DNA from: Herpetosiphon geysericola
GTDB taxonomy: Bacteria > Chloroflexota > Chloroflexia > Chloroflexales > Herpetosiphonaceae
NCBI RefSeq assembly: GCF_001306135.1
Contig: NZ_LGKP01000017.1
Coordinates: 1 to 64,000 of the forward strand
Length of the DNA stretch: 64,000 bases
Direction of reading: 5' to 3'
Shown here: positions 30,782-43,339 of the stretch, in pieces
Numbering within the stretch: the stretch's first letter is position 1
Layout of the letters: every line of letters starts with the position of its first letter
The notes under the pieces: model-generated
What the model was told of the DNA's origin: nothing
Seen by the model: the letters and a program-made list of their open reading frames with translations, nothing else
The model's database searches: none
Position numbers and translations under genes: made by a program

Positions 30782-33556
30782 ATGATTAGCAACCCACCCC
30801 GCGAACGCCTAGTGTTCGATCAAGGCTGGCGTTTTGCCCTCGGCCATGCCTTCGACCCCGCCCAAGATTTTCAGCTTGATAGCAGCCATTTTTCGTTTTT
30901 GGCCAAAGCTGGCTATGGCGATGGTGCAGCCTCGCCCAAATTCGACGATCGGGCTTGGCGTGTGGTCGATTTGCCCCACGATTGGTGCGTCGAACTGCCA
31001 TTCGATCAATATGCCAGCCACAGCCATGGCTACAAAGCAATTGGCCGCAAGTTTCCCGCCAACAGCGTTGGCTGGTATCGCAAAAGCTTTGAAATTGCCG
31101 CCAGCGAGCTTGGGCGACGGATCAGCCTCGAATTCGATGGCGTGCATCGCGATTCCAAGGTTTGGATCAATGGCTTTTATCTTGGCAACGAGCCAAGCGG
31201 CTACACCAGTTTTAGCTACGATATTAGCGATTATCTGAATTATGGCGGCCAGAATGTGGTTGTTGTGCGCGCCGATGCTACCACCGAGGAAGGGTGGTTT
31301 TACGAAGGCGCTGGCATTTATCGCCATGTCTGGCTCTGCAAAACCGCGCCGCTGCATGTCGCCCGCTATGGCACCTTTGTGACGAGCGAAGTCCACGAGA
31401 CAAGCGCAACGATAACGATTCAAACCACAATTGTCAACCAAAGCCAGCAACCAGTGGAATTCAGCTTACGCGAAACCATCAACGCACCTGATGCAACGCC
31501 CGTCGTGCAAGCCCAAAGCCCAATCTATCAACTTGCTGCTGGTCAAAGCGCCGAATTTACCCACCAGCACCAGCTGAACAATCCCCAACTCTGGGATCTT
31601 ACCAGCCCTCATTTGTATCAACTTACTACCACTGTGCAACTTGGCGATGACGTAGTTGATAGCTACGAAACCAGCTTTGGGGTGCGCAGCATTCGCTTTG
31701 ATCCCGATCAGGGCTTTTTCTTGAACGGGCGCTCGGTCAAATTAGTTGGCAGCAATCAGCACCAAGATCATGCTGGAGTTGGCACGGCGCTGCCCGATAG
31801 TTTACAAACATATCGCATTCAACGCTTGCAGGAATTCAATCATAACGCGATTCGCACCTCACACAACCCGCCAACGCCTGAGTTTCTTGATGCCTGTGAT
31901 CGCTTGGGTATGTTGGTCTTGAATGAAAACCGCTTGATGGGCAGCAATCCTGAGCATTTGCGCCATGTCGAGCAACTGATCAAGCGCGATCGCAACCATC
32001 CATCGGTCATTTTATGGTCGTTGGGCAACGAAGAATGGGCGATTGAAGGCACGATTATCGGCGCACGCATCGCCAGCACCATGCAACGTTTCGCCCGCCA
32101 ATTCGATCATACCCGCCTATTCACGATTGCCTGTAGCGGCGGCTGGGATAAAGGCATTGGCACGGTGACTGATGTGGTTGGCTATAACTACATTTGGCAT
32201 GGCGATATTGATGCGCACCACGCCAAATTTCCTTGGCAAGCTGGCGTTGGCACCGAGGAAAGCAACACCTATGGAACCCGCGGCATTTACCAAACTGATG
32301 CTAGCCGCGGCCACTTGGCGGCATCTCCCAGCGGTGATGGCTACGCCGACACCGAATTTAGCTGGCAATTTTATGCTCAACGCCCATTCTTGGCTGGGCT
32401 ATTCTTCTGGACGGGCTTCGATTATCGCGGCGAACCAACGCCGTTTGAATGGCCAGCGGTCGCCAGCCAATTTGGCTTTTTCGATCTCTGCGGTTTCCCC
32501 AAGGATATTGCCTACTACACTAAGGCTTGGTGGGGGCAAAAGCCAGTTTTACACCTTGGCTATCACTGGGATTGGCCGAACGATCTCGGTCAAGTCAAAA
32601 GCTTTCCAATTTATAGCAATTGCCAAGAAGTTGAGCTGTGGCTCAATGGCGTGAGCCTTGGCCGCCGTGCAATGCCCAAAAACGGTCATCAACAATGGGA
32701 AGTCGCCTATCAACCAGGCGAATTGCTGGCTCGCGGCTATAACGATGGCGTTGAAGTGATCAGCGCGAGCCTGCGCACCAGCCAAGCAGCCAGCCAGATT
32801 CAGCTTGTGCTTGATTATGGTCAACTCAAGCAAGTGGGCGATCTTGCGGTCGTTACGCTGCAAGTCTGCGACGAGCAAGGCCAAATTGTGCCAACCGCCA
32901 ACCACCTGCTTGATCTCCAATTAACTGGTTCGGCCAAGATTTTGGGCGTTGGCAATGGCGATCCCTCCAGCCACGAGTCAGATCAATATCACCAACGCTA
33001 CCTCATTAGCCCAATTCAAATTACTGGCGAGCAAACCGCCGCTGATCTGAGCGCTGGCTTAGAGTTGGCACGCGGAGCAGTAGCCCAAAGCTGGCAACCA
33101 GCATTCTGGCACCATAACGACGATCAACAAGCCAATTCACAACCCTATATCGTCTTCAATGGCAGTTTTGAGCTACCAAACTACAGCGAAGCGAGCAGCA
33201 TTCGTTTGTTCAGCAAAAGCATCGCCCACGACTATAGCGTTTATATCAATGGCCAACTGATCGCCAGCGAGATTGCGCTGGCTCAGGGCGACCAAGTATT
33301 TGAATTGAGCCACGATCTGGTGCGGCCTGGCCAAAACAGCTATCTAGTAACTGGGCGCTGGATCAAAAAAGCCAATCCATGGACGTTCCCCAATCGTGAG
33401 CCTGGGGTAGTGCAAGTTATCGAGCCAGCAGCACCATGGCAACGCCGCGCTTTCAACGGTTTAGCCCAAGTAATTGTGCAACACACTGGCGGCACTGAGC
33501 CAATTAGCCTCAGCGCAAACAACCCTGAACTCAGCAGCGCAAGCCTGACATTTTAA
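30782..33556 (+). CDS. GH2 beta-galactosidase/beta-glycosidase
   Basis: 924 residues. The sugar-binding domain (DLPHDWCVELPFDQ, SVGWYRKSFEI, LEFDGVHRDSKVWINGFYLG) covers about 40-200, then an Ig-like domain, then the TIM barrel with FNHNAIRTSHNPPTPEFLDA. Acid/base Glu417 lies in LGNEEW and the probable nucleophile in VGTEES (near 492). The C-terminus adds further beta domains including INGQLIASEIAL. No signal peptide, so it acts in the cytoplasm on beta-linked galactosides or related glycosides. Its stop shares the bases TTAA with the convergent TetR stop. Confidence 0.9.
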   Translation: MISNPPRERLVFDQGWRFALGHAFDPAQDFQLDSSHFSFLAKAGYGDGAASPKFDDRAWRVVDLPHDWCVELPFDQYASHSHGYKAIGRKFPANSVGWYRKSFEIAASELGRRISLEFDGVHRDSKVWINGFYLGNEPSGYTSFSYDISDYLNYGGQNVVVVRADATTEEGWFYEGAGIYRHVWLCKTAPLHVARYGTFVTSEVHETSATITIQTTIVNQSQQPVEFSLRETINAPDATPVVQAQSPIYQLAAGQSAEFTHQHQLNNPQLWDLTSPHLYQLTTTVQLGDDVVDSYETSFGVRSIRFDPDQGFFLNGRSVKLVGSNQHQDHAGVGTALPDSLQTYRIQRLQEFNHNAIRTSHNPPTPEFLDACDRLGMLVLNENRLMGSNPEHLRHVEQLIKRDRNHPSVILWSLGNEEWAIEGTIIGARIASTMQRFARQFDHTRLFTIACSGGWDKGIGTVTDVVGYNYIWHGDIDAHHAKFPWQAGVGTEESNTYGTRGIYQTDASRGHLAASPSGDGYADTEFSWQFYAQRPFLAGLFFWTGFDYRGEPTPFEWPAVASQFGFFDLCGFPKDIAYYTKAWWGQKPVLHLGYHWDWPNDLGQVKSFPIYSNCQEVELWLNGVSLGRRAMPKNGHQQWEVAYQPGELLARGYNDGVEVISASLRTSQAASQIQLVLDYGQLKQVGDLAVVTLQVCDEQGQIVPTANHLLDLQLTGSAKILGVGNGDPSSHESDQYHQRYLISPIQITGEQTAADLSAGLELARGAVAQSWQPAFWHHNDDQQANSQPYIVFNGSFELPNYSEASSIRLFSKSIAHDYSVYINGQLIASEIALAQGDQVFELSHDLVRPGQNSYLVTGRWIKKANPWTFPNREPGVVQVIEPAAPWQRRAFNGLAQVIVQHTGGTEPISLSANNPELSSASLTF

Positions 33557-34155
33557 TCTTCGGCAACTGTGCGAGCCAGCACTGCTTCCAACAAGGCAGT
33601 TGCTGGCTCCTCGATTAATAATAATTGATCGATTTGATCGCTTTCCATGGCTTGCAAAATTAATTCGTTAATCCCGCCCACAATTGCCATCGCCAAAGCT
33701 GGCGTGATTTGGCGTTTCTGCGGCGAATCATAGTGTTGGTCGGCTCCGGTTGCCCGCAACAAATCAGCAAAGCGTTGATTGGCGGCGCGGCGCACCTGCA
33801 AACCCCTGCTGCCTGCGGCCAGAATCTCAATAAATAACGTCCGCATCAGCAACGGATGGGCTTTGATGCGCTGTAAATAGGCCCGATGGGCGCAGCGCAC
33901 CCGCGAATGCATATCGTGCGCGCTCTCGATTGCTTGGCGAATAACCTCGATCAGCTGGTCGGTGGCGGCGGTATAGAGCGCCAACAAACAATCTTCTTTG
34001 CTCGCAAAATGCTCATAAAACGTCCGCTTGGAAACCCGCGCCAAGCGCACAATATCGGCAATTGTCGTTTCTGCATAGCCTTTTTCGGCCACCGCCGCCG
34101 CCATGCCATCCATCAAGCGGCTACGATATTCAGTTTCGCTTACTTGTTCGGTCAT
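33553..34155 (-). CDS. TetR-family repressor, probable regulator of the CYP102-type gene
   Basis: 200 residues from ATG 34155 (MTEQVSETEYRSRLMDGMAA); ATG 34188 is an alternative without a ribosome site. The HTH is GYAETTIADIVRLARVSKRT then FYEHFASKEDCLLALY. The C-terminal helical ligand domain has FIEILAAGSRGLQVRRAANQ. The gene diverges from the P450-reductase fusion. Two identical-arm palindromes lie between the genes, so it likely represses both itself and the P450 and is released by a fatty or aromatic ligand, as BM3R1 does for Bacillus CYP102A1. Confidence 0.88.
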   Translation of the reverse strand: MTEQVSETEYRSRLMDGMAAAVAEKGYAETTIADIVRLARVSKRTFYEHFASKEDCLLALYTAATDQLIEVIRQAIESAHDMHSRVRCAHRAYLQRIKAHPLLMRTLFIEILAAGSRGLQVRRAANQRFADLLRATGADQHYDSPQKRQITPALAMAIVGGINELILQAMESDQIDQLLLIEEPATALLEAVLARTVAED

Positions 34156-34204
34156 ACCACCCTCGTCGTTGAGCCATTCCTCACCCATACTAGCTTAATT
34201 TCTT

Positions 34205-34220
34205 GGTACTTGACAGTACC
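34205..34220. promoter_or_regulatory. TetR operator O1
   Basis: GGTACTTGACAGTACC: arms GGTACT/AGTACC around a 4-base centre. The arms are identical to those of O2. Confidence 0.8.
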
Positions 34221-34248
34221 AGAAGCAAATGATAGCATAAATCGTGTT

Positions 34249-34264
34249 GGTACTCAATAGTACC
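34249..34264. promoter_or_regulatory. TetR operator O2
   Basis: GGTACTCAATAGTACC: same arms and spacing as O1, centre 44 bases away (about four helical turns, same face of the helix). It lies 68 bases before the P450 ATG. Confidence 0.8.
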
Positions 34265-34331
34265 AAATATTCTTTTTGATGATTCGCGGCGACCTGCACA
34301 GGCCAGCATTGCAATAAACGAGGCTCGTTGT

Positions 34332-37300
34332 ATGAGTATTTCCAGCCCAATTCGTGCTATTCCCCAACCACCAACTCGTCCGATTGTTGGCAATGTGCCA
34401 GATATTGGCATGGAAACACCGGTGCAAAATTTGATGAAACTAGCCCAGCATTATGGGCCAATTTTTCGGGTGAGTTTTCCCAATCGCTCGGTATTGGTGG
34501 TTTCTTCAGCAGCGCTAGTGGCCGAAATTAGCGATCAAGAGCGTTTTGATAAATTATTGCATGGCCCGTTGATTCAAATTCGCGATTTTGCTGGCGATGG
34601 TTTGTTTACGGCCTACACCGAAGAAGCCAATTGGAGCAAGGCTCATCGTTTGTTGATGCCAGCCTTTGGGCCAGCAAGCATGCGCAATTATTTTGATGAC
34701 ATGCTCGATATCGCCGACCAATTGTTTACCAAATGGGAGCGCCAAGGGCCAGAAACCGATTTCGATGTTGCCGATAATATGACCCGCCTGACGCTGGACA
34801 CGATTGCCTTGTGTGGCTTTGGCTATCGCTTCAATTCGTTTTATCAACGCGAAATGCACCCATTTGTTGAGGCAATGGTGCGAGCCTTGGCCGAAGCAGG
34901 TGCGCGCGCCCGCCGTTTGTCAATTCAAACCAAACTGATGCGTTCGACCCAGCGTCAATACGAAGCTGATATGCACTATATGCACAGCATTACCGATGAA
35001 TTGATCGCCAAACGCCGCAACCTCCCCAGCAACGAAGTGCCCAATGATTTATTGGGATTAATGCTCAATGCCAAAGATTCAATCACTGGCGAAGGCTTAG
35101 ATGATGCCAATATTCGCAATCAACTGGTGACATTTTTGATTGCAGGCCACGAAACGACCAGCGGATTGCTCTCGTTCGCCACCTATTTCTTATTGCAACA
35201 ACCAGAAATTTTGCAACGCGCCCAAACCATTGTCGATGCTGTGCTGGGCGATCGCTTGCCGCGCTACGAAGATTTAGCCAAACTTGGCTATCTCGACCAA
35301 ATTTTGCGCGAAACCCTGCGGCTTTGGCCAACCGCACCAGTGTTTGGCGTCTATGCCAAGCATGATACGACGATTGCTGGCTTTCCAGTTAAGCAAGGCG
35401 AAAAATTCCTTGCGCTGTTGCCAACTTTGCACCGCGACCCCAAAGTGTGGACTAATCCTGAAGCGTTTGATCCCGATCGTTTTGCGCCCGAAAGCCGCGA
35501 ACAAATTCCTGAACATGCCTGGAAGCCATTTGGCAATGGTCAACGCGCCTGTATTGGCCGCTCATTTGCCATGCAAGAGGCCACGTTGGTGCTGGCAATG
35601 CTGCTGCAACGCTTTGAATTGTCACAACCTCAGCCCTACAAACTGCATGTCAAAGAAACCTTGACCCTCAAACCAGAAGGCTTGACCGTGCGCGCTCGCC
35701 TGCGCAAAACGATTAATCGGGCCAGCCATGCAGGGCAACCAACAACTACCCCTAAACCAGCTAGCAACCAAGCCCAGCACAACACGCCATTGTTGGTGCT
35801 CTATGGCTCAAATTCTGGCTCGTCGGAAGCTTTTGCCCGCCGCATTGCCAGCGATGGCGAAGCCCAAGGCTACCAAGCAACTGTTGCGCCACTCAATGAT
35901 TATGTCAATAAATTACCAACTACAGGTGCAGTGAGCATCGTTGCGGCTTCGTACAATGGTCAGCCCGCCAATAATGCCCAAGCTTTTTGCCAATGGCTGG
36001 CCAACGTGGAGCCAGGCTCGCTCAAGGGCGTGCGCTATAGCGTGTTTGGCTGTGGCAACCGCGATTGGCAAAGCACCTACCAAGCAGTGCCAAGCCAAAT
36101 TGATCAGCAATTGCAGGCAGCAGGAGCCACACGCTTGCTCGAACGTGGCGCAGCTGATGCCCGCAGCGATTTCTTTGGCGATTTTGAGCGCTGGTATGCG
36201 CCATTTTGGCAAACCCATAATCAAGCATTTGCAATCGAAACCACAACAATCAATTCCAAACCACTCTACGAGGTTGAACTACTGCCAACAAGCAGCAACC
36301 AACTAGCCCAACAAAACGGCTTGGTGTTTGCTAATGTGCGCGAAAATCGCGAACTAGTGGATTTAAGTTCGCCTTTAGGTCGCTCAAAACGCCATCTCGA
36401 ATTCAGCTTGCCTGCTGAAATTCAGTATCGTGCTGGCGATTATTTGGCAATTCTGCCAGAAAATCATCCAAACCTGATCGAGCGGGTCTGCAAACATTTT
36501 GGCCTTAAACCAGAACAAAGCGTGGTTTTGCACGCCAATCGGGCCGCCAACTTGCCACTTGAGCAGCCCATGAGCCTTGGGGAGTTGCTCAAAAGCCATG
36601 TTGAATTGGCAACGCCAGCGACTCAGCATCATTTAGCAATTTTGGCAGCAAAGAATGTTTGTCCGCCGCATCAAATCCATTTAGCTAGTTTGGCACAAGA
36701 TACTGAGCGTTACAACAACGAGATTCTGCAAAAACGGGTCAGCGTAGTGGATTTGCTTGAGCAATATCCATCATCAGTGCTGAATTTCGGCGAATTTTTG
36801 GCGCTTTTGCCAGCAATGCGGGTACGCCAATACTCCATTTCATCATCGCCGTTGCTCAACGCCAACCAAGCAAGCTTAACTGTCGCGGTCGTCGATGCGC
36901 CTGCGTGGTCGGGCAAAGGCCAGTTTTATGGCACATGTTCAAGCTATTTGGCCCGCTTGCAGGTTGGCGATCGCATCGCAATCAGCTTGCGCCAGCCACA
37001 TATTCCATTTCAACCGCCAGTTGATAACAACCAACCATTGCTGATGATCTGCGCAGGCACAGGTTTAGCGCCATTTCGTGGCTTTATCCAAGAACGAGTA
37101 GCTCGCCACGAGCAAGGCGAGCTGCTTGGCCCAACTGCCCTGTTTTTCGGTTGCGATCATCCCGAGGTTGATCTGTTGTATCGTGAGCAAATTCAGGCCT
37201 GGCAGCAAGCAGGAGTCTTAGAATTTTATCCAGCATTCTATCGCCAGCCAATCGGCGAGGTTAGCTTTGTGCAACATCGGCTCTGGCAAGAACGCCAACG

Positions 37301-37490
37301 GGTCTGGAGTTTAATCGAACAAGGTGCCGTGATTGCGGTCTGTGGTGATGGGCGTTATATGGCTCCAGCAGTGCGCGAAACCCTTGCCAAAATCTATGCT
37401 GAAGCTACTGGCAGCGAGCAAGCAGCAGCCATGGAATGGATTAGCGAAATGGAGCAAGCAGGCCGCTATGTGGCCGATGTTTTTGGCTAG
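34332..37490 (+). CDS. Self-sufficient cytochrome P450-reductase fusion, CYP102 type
   Basis: 1052 residues, the length of P450 BM3 (1049). The P450 domain has the I-helix AGHETTSG (271-278), ExxR in ETLR (327-330) and heme Cys407 in FGNGQRACIGRS. An FMN flavodoxin domain starts near 485 (LLVLYGSNSGSSEAFA, AASYNGQPANNAQAF). A FAD/NADPH reductase follows: RQYSISSSPL (near 830), ICAGTGLAPFRGF (near 906) and CGDGRYMAPAVRETL (near 1002). It should hydroxylate fatty acids near the chain end, or related lipids, with NADPH and oxygen in one chain. By alignment from memory with BM3, Phe92 matches Phe87 and Arg52 matches Arg47, but Tyr51 is replaced by Val56. Controlled by the divergent TetR gene. Confidence 0.95.
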   Translation: MSISSPIRAIPQPPTRPIVGNVPDIGMETPVQNLMKLAQHYGPIFRVSFPNRSVLVVSSAALVAEISDQERFDKLLHGPLIQIRDFAGDGLFTAYTEEANWSKAHRLLMPAFGPASMRNYFDDMLDIADQLFTKWERQGPETDFDVADNMTRLTLDTIALCGFGYRFNSFYQREMHPFVEAMVRALAEAGARARRLSIQTKLMRSTQRQYEADMHYMHSITDELIAKRRNLPSNEVPNDLLGLMLNAKDSITGEGLDDANIRNQLVTFLIAGHETTSGLLSFATYFLLQQPEILQRAQTIVDAVLGDRLPRYEDLAKLGYLDQILRETLRLWPTAPVFGVYAKHDTTIAGFPVKQGEKFLALLPTLHRDPKVWTNPEAFDPDRFAPESREQIPEHAWKPFGNGQRACIGRSFAMQEATLVLAMLLQRFELSQPQPYKLHVKETLTLKPEGLTVRARLRKTINRASHAGQPTTTPKPASNQAQHNTPLLVLYGSNSGSSEAFARRIASDGEAQGYQATVAPLNDYVNKLPTTGAVSIVAASYNGQPANNAQAFCQWLANVEPGSLKGVRYSVFGCGNRDWQSTYQAVPSQIDQQLQAAGATRLLERGAADARSDFFGDFERWYAPFWQTHNQAFAIETTTINSKPLYEVELLPTSSNQLAQQNGLVFANVRENRELVDLSSPLGRSKRHLEFSLPAEIQYRAGDYLAILPENHPNLIERVCKHFGLKPEQSVVLHANRAANLPLEQPMSLGELLKSHVELATPATQHHLAILAAKNVCPPHQIHLASLAQDTERYNNEILQKRVSVVDLLEQYPSSVLNFGEFLALLPAMRVRQYSISSSPLLNANQASLTVAVVDAPAWSGKGQFYGTCSSYLARLQVGDRIAISLRQPHIPFQPPVDNNQPLLMICAGTGLAPFRGFIQERVARHEQGELLGPTALFFGCDHPEVDLLYREQIQAWQQAGVLEFYPAFYRQPIGEVSFVQHRLWQERQRVWSLIEQGAVIAVCGDGRYMAPAVRETLAKIYAEATGSEQAAAMEWISEMEQAGRYVADVFG

Positions 37491-41567: not shown

Positions 41568-42986
41568 TTAGCGCTTGTTGAGCATGCGCCGCGACCATGC
41601 CACCAAGCGCTTGGCAGCTCCCCGATAGGGCGGTTGAAACAGATTAACCATATTCAGGCCGCCTTGTTGAAAGACCGCTCGTTCATGCGAAAAGGTTTTA
41701 AAGCTATAAAAGCCATAATAGTTACCCAAGCCACTTTGGCCAACGCCGCCAAATGGCAAATACGGATTGGCCAGATTGAGCAAAACGCCATTAATCACGC
41801 TGCTGCCAGCTGGAATTTCGCGCAACAGCCAATTGGTAATTGCTTGATTTTCGCTGAAAATAGCCATTGTTAGCGGCTTGCCACTGGCACGGGTGGCCAT
41901 AATTACTTCATCAATCTGGTCGTAGACCAAAATTGGCAAAATTGGCCCAAAAATTTCTTCTTGCATAATTGCCATGCCAGGCTTAACATTGGTCAAAACG
42001 GTTGGCGCAAAACGCGCTGGATGATCGGTTGATTGACCACCTAAGGCTACTAATGCCCCTTGGGCAACCGAGTTATTGAGCAAGCCGCGCAAGCGAGCTG
42101 TGGCATTGGCATCGATAACATTCGCCAAATCAGGCGATTGCAAACGGGTATAATCGCCTTTGCCATAATTACGCTCAATTTGTTTGATAATTAATTGAGT
42201 TAACGCTTGGGCCTGCTCACGCTGCACCCAAACATGATCAGGTGCAACACAGGTTTGGCCTGCATTGACAAACTTGCCCCAAACAATCAATTGGGCCGCC
42301 CGTTTCAAATCTGCCGAACGATCAACAATTGCTGGCGATTTGCCACCGAGCTCCAAGGTAACCGAGCTAAAATGTTCAGCAGCGCGTTGCATCACGTATT
42401 GGCCAATGCGTGGGCTGCCAGTAAAGAAAATATGCTCAAATGGTAAATCGAGCAAGGCTTCGGCTGTATCAATATCGCCCACAACCGTGGTTACATGCTC
42501 AGCCTTGAAGGCGGCGGCGATAATATTGGCAATCACTTGAGCGGTATGCGGTGTGCGCTCTGATGGCCGCACAATTGCACAATTGCCAGCGGCAACTGCC
42601 CCAACCAAGGGAGCCAAGGCCAGCGAAAGCGGATAATTCCAAGGAGCCAAAATCAGCACCACGCCGCGCGGCTCGTATTGAATCCAGCTTTTGCTACCAG
42701 CAAGCATAGTGGGCGTTTTGACCCGTTTGGGCTGCATCCAGCCTTCGAGGCGTTTGATTGCAAAATTAATTTGCTCGATTACCTGTTGAATTTCGGTGGC
42801 TTCGGTTTCGGCCACAGGTTTCGCAAAATCAGCCTGCAAGGCTGCATAAATATCGGGGCGGGCTTGTTCGATTGCCCGTTTAAATTGCTGTAAATAGCCA
42901 AGCCGCTCGGCTGCTCGGCTGGCAGCGATGCGTCCGCGATTGGCCTGCAAGGCCGCAAATTGGCCATGAATTTGCATGAGGTTCAT
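41568..42986 (-). CDS. Aldehyde dehydrogenase, class 3 / fatty-aldehyde type
   Basis: 472 residues starting MNLMQIHGQFAALQANRGRI, with GGAGGAATCA upstream; an earlier frame start at 43172 runs through a repeat and is rejected. Catalytic Cys near 246 in NAGQTCVAPD, general base Glu near 212 in LELGGKSP, NAD motif FTGSPRIGQYV, and the class 3 pattern LILAPWNYPLSLALAPLVGA. The C-terminus is amphipathic (NLFQPPYRGAAKRLVAW...), as in membrane-touching fatty aldehyde dehydrogenases. It oxidises medium or long aldehydes to acids with NAD(P). Possible functional partner of the P450 fusion 4 kb away, though on the other strand. Confidence 0.9.
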   Translation of the reverse strand: MNLMQIHGQFAALQANRGRIAASRAAERLGYLQQFKRAIEQARPDIYAALQADFAKPVAETEATEIQQVIEQINFAIKRLEGWMQPKRVKTPTMLAGSKSWIQYEPRGVVLILAPWNYPLSLALAPLVGAVAAGNCAIVRPSERTPHTAQVIANIIAAAFKAEHVTTVVGDIDTAEALLDLPFEHIFFTGSPRIGQYVMQRAAEHFSSVTLELGGKSPAIVDRSADLKRAAQLIVWGKFVNAGQTCVAPDHVWVQREQAQALTQLIIKQIERNYGKGDYTRLQSPDLANVIDANATARLRGLLNNSVAQGALVALGGQSTDHPARFAPTVLTNVKPGMAIMQEEIFGPILPILVYDQIDEVIMATRASGKPLTMAIFSENQAITNWLLREIPAGSSVINGVLLNLANPYLPFGGVGQSGLGNYYGFYSFKTFSHERAVFQQGGLNMVNLFQPPYRGAAKRLVAWSRRMLNKR

Positions 42987-43060
42987 TGATTCCTCCAACA
43001 CACCATATCGCAAGCTATTATACGCCAGCTTGGCGGCAACATATAGAAACTTGCTAAAAC

Positions 43061-43160
43061 CACAAACGGCCCAGTCGGGCCGCTTGCAGGAGAGAAGAGT
43101 GTAGAGGAGGAAGAATTTGATCGTAGTATCAGGCTTGAAGCTTACGATCCACCTAACGAG
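43061..43160 (-). repeat. Terminator-bearing dispersed repeat, copy B
   Basis: On the minus strand: CTCGTTAGGTGGATCGTAAG ... GATCAAATTCTTCCTCCTC ... CTTCTCTCCTGCAAGCGG then hairpin GCAAGCGGCCC/GGGCCGTTTGT. Same order as copy A at 26726, which lies on the plus strand, with base changes and small indels. Confidence 0.7.
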
Positions 43161-43339
43161 CCAAACCGCCACAATTCCTATTTCAATCTAGTCCAAAGGA
43201 TGAAGTCCGAAGCCAAAATCAGAAGCCAAACGCGATAAGAGGCCAGGGGCTAGGGATTAGGGTTCGGGGCTCGGTCGTTGGGGGCTGGTGCCGAGCGATC
43301 AGAAAATAATGGATACATGTGTGGAAGCTGTGGCTAAGC

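What the first reader, a model, noticed from the sequence alone, without database searches (positions are those of the whole stretch)
33553..37490. TetR and self-sufficient P450 with paired operators 44 bp apart
Identical-arm palindromes GGTACT/AGTACC lie between the divergent genes, on the same helix face, one 68 bases before the P450 ATG. This mirrors BM3R1/CYP102A1 of Bacillus in a distant phylum, with different operator sequence. Two sites suggest cooperative or dual-promoter control.
Basis: partly seen in the sequence, partly recalled or inferred. Interest (0 to 1): 0.65.

Follow-up and report, generated by a model that had tools for sequence, protein, structure and literature searches.

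The report
Private repressor switch for fused P450
A soil predator bacterium keeps a fused P450 enzyme, probably a fatty acid hydroxylase, next to a repressor gene, with two like binding sites laid over two interlocked promoters; it is a neat, well conserved example of a kind of switch that is already known.

Summary
Confirmed: two palindromes with identical GGTACT/AGTACC arms lie 44 bp apart between a divergent TetR gene and a CYP102-like fused P450. They are the only exact copies in the 6.14-Mb genome and in each of 6 of 6 Herpetosiphon genomes, always 44 bp apart. New here: each palindrome contains the -35 hexamer of one promoter and lies at the predicted start of the other. This explains the spacing; cooperativity is not needed and the helix-face claim is weak. 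Best reading: an autoregulated TetR repressor that can hamper both genes from either site. Its model is nearest FadR and FasR, so an acyl ligand is likely but unshown. The Bacillus comparison is partly right: fatR-cyp102A3 is an operon with one palindrome; SAV576/CYP102D1 of Streptomyces is closer. Of 31 related P450 loci outside the genus, 20 have a TetR gene near by (8 divergent, 12 tandem), of unlike subfamilies. Verdict: new member of a known kind. Open: an invariant 31-nt leader block, and a one-mismatch site, present in 6 of 6 genomes, before a nuclease gene.

The parts
33553..34188 (-). TetR-family regulator ORF as listed; the true start is most likely 34155 (200 aa)
   Evidence: TetR_N E 3.3e-13; TAG between the two ATGs in one species and GAGG before ATG 34155 in 6 of 6; nearest folds FadR and FasR
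34332..37490 (+). self-sufficient cytochrome P450 / reductase fusion, 1052 aa, CYP102-like
   Evidence: p450, Flavodoxin_1, FAD_binding_1, NAD_binding_1 in order; full-length alignment to a solved bifunctional P450/reductase chain, E 1.6e-296
34203..34222 (.). operator 1: centred on the P450 -35 hexamer and covering about +1 to +20 of the predicted tetR transcript
   Evidence: 19 of 20 positions invariant in 6 species
34247..34266 (.). operator 2: contains the tetR -35 hexamer and covers about +3 to +22 of the predicted P450 transcript
   Evidence: 17 of 20 positions invariant in 6 species, GGTACT and AGTACC arms both invariant
34210..34238 (+). P450 promoter: TTGACA, 17 nt, TAGCAT; start predicted near 34245
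   Evidence: consensus scan, 10 of 12; both hexamers invariant in 6 of 6
34229..34257 (-). tetR promoter: TTGAGT, 17 nt, TATCAT; start predicted near 34222
   Evidence: consensus scan, 9 of 12; TATCAT invariant in 6 of 6, TTGAGT in 5 of 6 (TTAAGT in L008)
34189..34202 (.). invariant AT-rich stretch, possible upstream element of the P450 promoter (inference)
   Evidence: 14 of 14 positions invariant in 6 species
34283..34313 (+). invariant block in the P450 leader, function unknown
   Evidence: 30 of 31 positions invariant against 115 of 396 fourfold sites of the P450 gene; unique in the genome with up to 3 mismatches; no Rfam match up to E 1

Best explanation
This is an autoregulated TetR repressor switch. 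A TetR dimer binds each of two 20-bp operators in the gap between the genes (176 bp from the likely tetR start, 143 bp from the listed one). Operator 1 hides the -35 hexamer of the P450 promoter and sits on the start of the tetR transcript; operator 2 hides the -35 hexamer of the tetR promoter and sits on the start of the P450 transcript. So either bound dimer hampers both genes, and two give tight shut-off. Both promoters lie within the same 48 bp, so two polymerases cannot sit there at once. A hydrophobic ligand, most likely a fatty acid, acyl-CoA or a prey or envelope lipid, releases TetR; the P450 is made, oxidises the inducer, and TetR returns. Shown here: the sites, their uniqueness as exact copies, their conservation, and their position over consensus promoters. 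Inferred: binding, repression of both genes, mutual exclusion, ligand class, P450 substrate.
For: Only two exact sites per genome, both here, in 6 of 6 genus genomes. Both promoters found by a consensus scan, 2 against 0.6 expected, each with its -35 inside an operator. Constant 44-bp spacing; operator 1 19/20 and operator 2 17/20 positions invariant, while the 16 nt after operator 2 keep 4/16 and fourfold sites of the P450 gene keep 115/396. In operator 1 the centre (the -35) is frozen too; in operator 2 the centre varies but the arms do not, as expected of two overlapping constraints. Gene pair conserved in 6 of 6. TetR model (mean pLDDT 81.4): 11 of the 12 best PDB chains are FadR or FasR, the other (1vi0) is named only a transcriptional regulator. 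The P450 keeps landmarks of the BM3-type fatty acid hydroxylase (landmarks recalled).
Against: No binding, start-site or expression data. The promoters rest on an E. coli-type consensus, untested in Herpetosiphon. The TetR is 18-21% identical to those 12 chains, its NCBIfam scores for FasR and FadR are far below cut-off, and its C-terminal domain reaches no Pfam threshold in 4 of 4 orthologues scanned (best TetR_C_32, E 0.11, in 1 of 4), so the ligand is a guess. Of the neighbours, beta-galactosidase and a PAS kinase do not point to lipids; an aldehyde dehydrogenase gene 4 kb away (41568-43172) is the only faint hint. A 1-mismatch operator-like site before a nuclease gene in 6 of 6 genomes may mean that the regulator is not private to the P450.
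Confidence: 0.8

Rival explanations
1. The palindromes act as RNA hairpins: each mRNA would begin with a stem-loop that stabilises it, and the one in the P450 leader, followed by a T-run, acts as an attenuator.
For: The terminator scan flags operator 2 as terminator-like; both transcripts are predicted to start at a palindrome; a stem is predicted there in the single-strand fold.
Against: The T-run after operator 2 is missing in 3 of 6 species (L006-L008). No pair changed on both sides (0 of 26), though the arms hardly vary, so this test has little power. The leader folds no better than shuffles (z -0.34). Two like sites beside a TetR gene need no RNA explanation.
Confidence: 0.06
2. The two sites form a cooperative unit: two TetR dimers contact each other on one face of the DNA.
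For: Constant 44-bp spacing in 6 of 6 genomes.
Against: 44 bp is 4.19 turns, about 70 degrees out of phase; the spacing equals the distance from a -35 to about +12 and follows from the two promoters. For Tn10 tetO1 and tetO2 there is no indication of cooperativity (PMC3037858, passages).
Confidence: 0.12
3. TetR acts as an activator, or responds to a non-lipid compound, for instance an aromatic or an antibiotic from prey; the P450 detoxifies it.
For: The closest NCBIfam model is FasR, named an activator, though far below its cut-off (55.7 against 330 bits). The C-terminal domain is unassigned. P450s of this frame accept many substrates (recalled).
Against: Sites over a -35 and a start site suit repression, not activation. 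Nearest folds are mostly acyl-CoA regulators.
Confidence: 0.25
4. The TetR-P450 pair is one ancient module shared with Bacillus BM3R1/CYP102A1, with operators that drifted.
For: 20 of 31 related P450 loci outside the genus have a TetR gene near by. In the TetR tree 10 P450-linked rows of one Chloroflexota family (f30) do group together with one unlinked TetR (89/90), so pairing is shared within that family.
Against: TetRs near these P450s differ in C-terminal domain (TetR_C_8, TetR_C_1, TetR_C_7, TetR_C_33 or none at threshold); holding all 19 P450-linked TetR rows in one clade is rejected (p-AU 0.002, with long branches in play); the five P450s nearest to Herpetosiphon's, 61-62% identical, have no TetR detected (3 of 5) or another TetR in tandem (2 of 5). 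Bm3R1 itself was not in any tree.
Confidence: 0.08

Closest known systems
SAV576 (TetR) / SAV575 = CYP102D1, Streptomyces avermitilis (PMC3742746 abstract and passages; PMC4051647 passages)
   Same: TetR gene divergent from a fused CYP102 P450; represses its own gene and the P450; palindromic sites found by footprinting in the shared promoter region; one overlaps the potential P450 -10.
   Different: 900-bp gap, three 15-bp sites CCRTACRVYGTATGS, one of them at the TetR start codon far from the others, and a second competing TetR (SAV577). Here 143-176 bp, two 20-bp sites, interlocked promoters, no second TetR gene next to it.
Bm3R1 / CYP102 of B. megaterium and FatR / CYP102A3 of B. subtilis (PMC3814354, passages)
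   Same: TetR-family repressor controls a CYP102 P450; FatR had one bound site in the genome by ChIP-on-chip, here two exact sites at one locus.
   Different: fatR-cyp102A3 is an operon with one 18-bp palindrome between start site and Shine-Dalgarno sequence. Here divergent, two sites.
Tn10 tetR/tetA (PMC3037858, passages; divergence of the two genes recalled)
   Same: Repressor gene and target gene have promoters that overlap with two operators; repressor at tetO1 shuts both genes, at tetO2 it blocks tetA and only lowers tetR. Works in the same way.
   Different: Target is an efflux pump; three promoters. Analogous layout; no kinship beyond the TetR family was tested.
FadR (Bacillus) and FasR (Mycobacterium) acyl-CoA regulators
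   Same: Nearest folds to the TetR model (TM to query 0.70-0.76 for the 12 best chains).
   Different: 18-21% identity; NCBIfam FadR and FasR scores far below cut-off (45 of 200 and 55.7 of 330 bits).

Membership tests
TetR family | TetR_N helix-turn-helix domain and all-alpha fold | tested here: met
   PF00440 E 3.3e-13, 49.6 bits against cut-off 24; all-helix model, mean pLDDT 81.4
CYP102-type self-sufficient P450 | P450, FMN, FAD and NAD(P) domains in one chain, in that order | tested here: met
   four Pfam domains above cut-off in order; end-to-end alignment, E 1.6e-296
CYP102-type self-sufficient P450 | BM3 heme-domain landmarks (R47, F87, acid-alcohol pair, heme cysteine; numbering recalled) | tested here: met
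   FPNR, GDGLF, AGHETTSG and FGNGQRACIG align to the 8dmg chain, which I take for BM3; the place of Y51 is V
CYP102-type self-sufficient P450 | at least 40% identity to a named CYP102 (nomenclature rule, recalled) | not tested
   identity to a named CYP102 was not computed; hence 'CYP102-like'
CYP102-type self-sufficient P450 | NADPH as electron donor (usual, not defining) | not testable with these tools
   residues speak against it: Y, R, V, F, F at S965, R966, K972, Y974, W1046 (numbering recalled)
Bm3R1/FatR fatty-acid-displaced regulator | TetR and P450 genes in one operon (shown in the passages for fatR-cyp102A3) | tested here: not met
   genes are divergent, in 6 of 6 species
Bm3R1/FatR fatty-acid-displaced regulator | one palindrome between start site and Shine-Dalgarno sequence | tested here: not met
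   two palindromes; only the second is in that place
Bm3R1/FatR fatty-acid-displaced regulator | released from DNA by fatty acids | not testable with these tools
   fold neighbours FadR and FasR only make it plausible
Bm3R1/FatR fatty-acid-displaced regulator | orthology to Bm3R1 or FatR | not tested
   neither sequence was compared
Divergent two-operator TetR switch (Tn10-like layout) | two like operators between divergent genes | tested here: met
Divergent two-operator TetR switch (Tn10-like layout) | overlapping divergent promoters | tested here: inconclusive
   consensus promoters on both strands overlap; start sites are not mapped
Divergent two-operator TetR switch (Tn10-like layout) | repressor shuts both genes | not testable with these tools
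   needs gel shift and expression data
SAV576-type TetR | 15-bp operator CCRTACRVYGTATGS | tested here: not met
   sites here are TTGGTACTN4AGTACCA(A/G); arms and spacing differ (one search compared, by eye)

The most novel reading that the evidence does not exclude
The switch has a second input and a second output. The 31-nt leader block (34283-34313), invariant at 30 of 31 positions in six species, is the site of another regulator, or an RNA or leader-peptide element, so that the P450 needs both release of TetR and a second signal; and the TetR also holds a secreted nuclease gene through the one-mismatch site that is present in 6 of 6 genomes, tying lipid oxidation to predation. More widely, fused P450s have captured unlike TetRs as repressors several times.
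Probability: 0.35. Interest if true: 0.45.

Novelty: new member of a known kind. Interest (0 to 1): 0.3.

Why it matters
It offers a compact repressor-operator pair from Chloroflexota (two exact sites per genome) that could serve as a genetic part, and a testable case of how fused P450s acquire repressors: related P450 loci carry TetRs of unlike subfamilies and unlike palindromes. It also points to a possible NADH-using clade of CYP102-like enzymes, useful in biocatalysis if shown.

Tried and rejected
Attenuator or RNA-hairpin reading of the palindromes: rejected, because the T-run is not conserved and there is no sign of covariation. A wider regulon: at 3 mismatches of the 20-bp pattern the genome has no more sites than the reversed control (22 against 31); but one 1-mismatch core, GGTATTCTATAGTACC, is exact in 6 of 6 genomes and stands before a non-specific endonuclease gene; I could neither confirm nor dismiss it. 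Against it, a promoter scan finds no plus-strand promoter over it (L105 none, L104 two minus-strand hits), and the 3' part of that leader is conserved as well, so the site is not alone in being kept. Leader block as an N-terminal extension of the P450: the frame does not fit (by hand). Leader peptide: an open stretch from a TTG is present in 6 of 6 but ends at different places, I see no Shine-Dalgarno sequence, and its third codon positions are as frozen as the rest, so selection looks nucleotide-level (by hand). Leader block in other P450 loci: best match 11-14 mismatches of 31 in 31 of 31 loci outside the genus. Cofold of block and start region: no better than shuffles. Printed work, searches and what was seen: 'Herpetosiphon'+'CYP102', 1 paper, listing; BM3R1/operator/CYP102A1, 23 papers, 20 listed; TetR+divergent+CYP102+self-sufficient, 8 papers, 7 listed; tetO1/tetO2, 3 papers; NADH+W1046, 2 papers; 'Herpetosiphon'+'TetR', 86 papers, 8 listed, of which PMC6210107 was searched by passages with no P450 hit and no hit for a TetR regulator; 'Herpetosiphon'+'cytochrome P450', 23 papers, 15 listed; TetR/P450/two operators, 9 papers. 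No listed title or start of abstract describes this Herpetosiphon switch; no paper was read whole, and PMC9281120 was seen in passages only.
Full report
What was claimed and what is there. All of that is in the sequence. The TetR ORF is 33553-34188 on the minus strand and the P450 ORF 34332-37490 on the plus strand; Pfam gives TetR_N for the first and P450, flavodoxin, FAD-binding and NAD-binding domains in order for the second. Palindrome 1 is 34203-34222 and palindrome 2 is 34247-34266.

More than chance. In the window GGTACTN4AGTACC with up to 2 mismatches matches only these two places, both exactly, against 0.40 expected (3 of 100 shuffles reach 2 matches at that loose setting). In the whole genome (6.14 Mb, 46 contigs) these two are the only exact matches and the reversed pattern has none. 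With 3 mismatches of the 20-bp form there are 22 forward matches against 31 for the control. In 6 of 6 genus genomes, the own one included, the only exact sites are this pair, always 44 bp apart, with 0-2 control matches per genome. In 3 of 3 genomes of other genera of the family there is no site with up to 1 mismatch; two of these are only 75-76% complete.

Conservation. The six intergenic regions align with no gap across the sites. Invariant positions: operator 1 19 of 20, operator 2 17 of 20, the -10 region 13 of 13, the stretch before operator 1 14 of 14, but only 4 of 16 just after operator 2; fourfold-degenerate sites of the P450 gene are invariant at 115 of 396. So the sites are held by selection. 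In operator 1 the centre, which is the -35 hexamer, is frozen too; in operator 2 the centre varies while the GGTACT and AGTACC arms do not.

The promoters. A consensus scan of 301 bases found two sigma-70-like promoters against 0.6 expected: plus strand TTGACA-17-TAGCAT at 34210-34238, minus strand TTGAGT-17-TATCAT at 34257-34229. Each -35 lies inside one palindrome and each predicted start (my estimate, 7 nt past the -10) falls at the edge of the other. The arrangement is nearly mirror-symmetric, off by 2 bp. This explains the 44 bp: it is the distance from a -35 centre to about +12. The helix-face argument is weak: 44 bp is 4.19 turns. The first tetR ATG (34188) is not the start: in L005 a TAG follows it before the second ATG, and a GAGG lies 5 nt before the ATG at 34155 in 6 of 6 species. 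The gap from that start to the P450 is 176 bp (177 in L005).

The proteins. The TetR model (28-row alignment, mean pLDDT 81.4, pTM 0.77) is nearest to Bacillus FadR and mycobacterial FasR: 11 of the 12 best PDB chains bear those names, the other (1vi0) only 'transcriptional regulator'; identity 18-21%. NCBIfam also ranks FasR and FadR first, far below their cut-offs. No Pfam C-terminal domain reaches threshold in 4 of 4 orthologues scanned. A fatty acyl ligand is the best guess, no more. The P450 aligns end to end with a solved bifunctional chain that I take for BM3. In the reductase the BM3 places recalled as S965, K972, Y974 and W1046 are Y, V, F and F, with R966 kept; in the five nearest relatives outside the genus K972, Y974 and W1046 are changed in the same way (V or I, F, F), S965 is Y, F or T, and R966 is kept in 2 of 5. 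NADH use is predicted, not shown.

How unusual is the pairing. Besides the six Herpetosiphon loci I examined 31 related P450 loci: 4 from the same class, 5 named genomes, 14 from the phylum (14 of the 25 places listed outside the genus; the rest were not fetched) and 8 plasmid records (8 of the 15 that cover at least 80% of the query). Several are close kin. A TetR gene was found near the P450 in 20 of 31: 8 divergent (in one, L097, another gene lies between) and 12 tandem. In 11 none was detected within the stretch held (about 1.5-3 kb; L083 has only about 250 bases upstream). None of 9 loci has GGTACN6GTACC, and none of the 31 has GGTACTN4AGTACC with up to 1 mismatch (one, L011, has a 2-mismatch match inside its P450 gene). 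Of the 20 TetR-linked loci, 18 showed at least one palindrome in the promoter stretch printed (at most six listed each), none with these arms: TGAATTATAATTCA over a -10 in 6 of 9 tandem Chloroflexota loci, TAGACA/TGTCTA in 3 of 4 divergent ones, TGGAAACCN4GGTTTCCA in Shinella and Sphingomonas. TetR C-terminal domains differ: TetR_C_8, TetR_C_1, TetR_C_7, TetR_C_33, or none (10 loci scanned). One clade for 19 P450-linked TetR rows (3 Herpetosiphon, 16 others) against 24 other TetRs is rejected (p-AU 0.002; long branches, and the 24 were chosen by likeness to the Herpetosiphon TetR). Against fully independent pairing: 10 of the 16, all from one Chloroflexota family, group with one unlinked TetR (89/90), so there the pair is partly inherited. 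The Herpetosiphon TetR stands on its own long branch, unplaced. In the P450 tree the Herpetosiphon enzymes join Reyranella, Vineibacter, an alphaproteobacterial MAG and Streptosporangium (100/100), not the other Chloroflexota: a sign of gene transfer. The 3 alphaproteobacterial loci have no TetR detected and the 2 Streptosporangium loci have an unlike one in tandem. So the Herpetosiphon pairing was probably made on its own.

Comparison with what is printed. FatR/CYP102A3 is an operon with one palindrome, and Bm3R1 works as a roadblock released by fatty acids (PMC3814354, passages). SAV576/SAV575 is a divergent TetR/CYP102D1 pair with three 15-bp sites (PMC3742746, abstract and passages; PMC4051647, passages). 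The Tn10 tet operon has promoters overlapping two operators, with no indication of cooperativity (PMC3037858, passages). The Herpetosiphon switch works like Tn10 in layout and like SAV576 in content. It is a new member of a known kind.

What is left. First, the block 34283-34313 in the P450 leader is invariant at 30 of 31 positions, unique in the genome with up to 3 mismatches, absent from 31 of 31 other P450 loci, not an Rfam family, and the leader folds no better than shuffles. A site for a second regulator is my first guess. Second, GGTATTCTATAGTACC, one mismatch from the operator core, occurs once in each of 6 of 6 genus genomes within an exactly kept 23-mer (control 0 in 6 of 6), 62 or 66 nt before the start of a non-specific endonuclease gene (6 loci, one read by eye). 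The 3' part of that leader is kept too, and no promoter was found over the site, so it may be chance or another element; if TetR binds it, the regulator also serves a nuclease.

Noticed in passing
34283-34313 (+): 31-nt block in the P450 leader, invariant at 30 of 31 positions in 6 Herpetosiphon species, unique in the genome, no RNA family match and no clear fold. Unexplained.
   Followed up: partly
L105:126-148 (own genome C10), L104:1812-1834, and G044:C5, G045:C46, G046:C112, G047:C2: A 23-mer with an operator-like core (GGTATTCTATAGTACC, one mismatch) is exact in 6 of 6 genomes, 62-66 nt before a gene for a non-specific endonuclease with a lamin-tail domain (domains scanned in 2 of 6): possible second target of the TetR, or another element.
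   Followed up: partly
36822-37490 (+): The reductase end of the P450 lacks most BM3 residues that hold the NADPH phosphate and stack on FAD (numbering recalled), as do its five nearest relatives outside the genus: NADH use predicted.
   Followed up: partly
G000:C45:244319-245494 and 245971-246213: Another TetR-like match lies in tandem before an unfused P450; a like arrangement shows in 5 of 5 other genus genomes. Synteny and operators not tested.
   Followed up: no
34189-34202: AT-rich stretch invariant at 14 of 14 positions, upstream of the P450 -35: possible upstream element.
   Followed up: no
33553-33556: The beta-galactosidase GalA gene (30782-33556, +) and tetR (-) converge and overlap by 4 bases at their stop codons.
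   Followed up: no
L074, L075, L081: The alphaproteobacterial relatives of the P450 (62% identity) have no TetR detected; each has an ORF with MTRLGG near its start upstream on the other strand, which looks like a wax ester synthase (motif recalled, not tested).
   Followed up: no
L087, L090, L091, L093, L094, L095: Six of nine tandem TetR/P450 loci of other Chloroflexota share a palindrome TGAATTATAATTCA that contains a TATAAT before TetR (variants in L086 and L092, none listed in L088): another design of the switch.
   Followed up: partly
L104-L109 upstream of the 23-mer: In two genomes (L105, L106) the sequence upstream changes abruptly right before the 23-mer, as if something had been inserted or rearranged there.
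   Followed up: no
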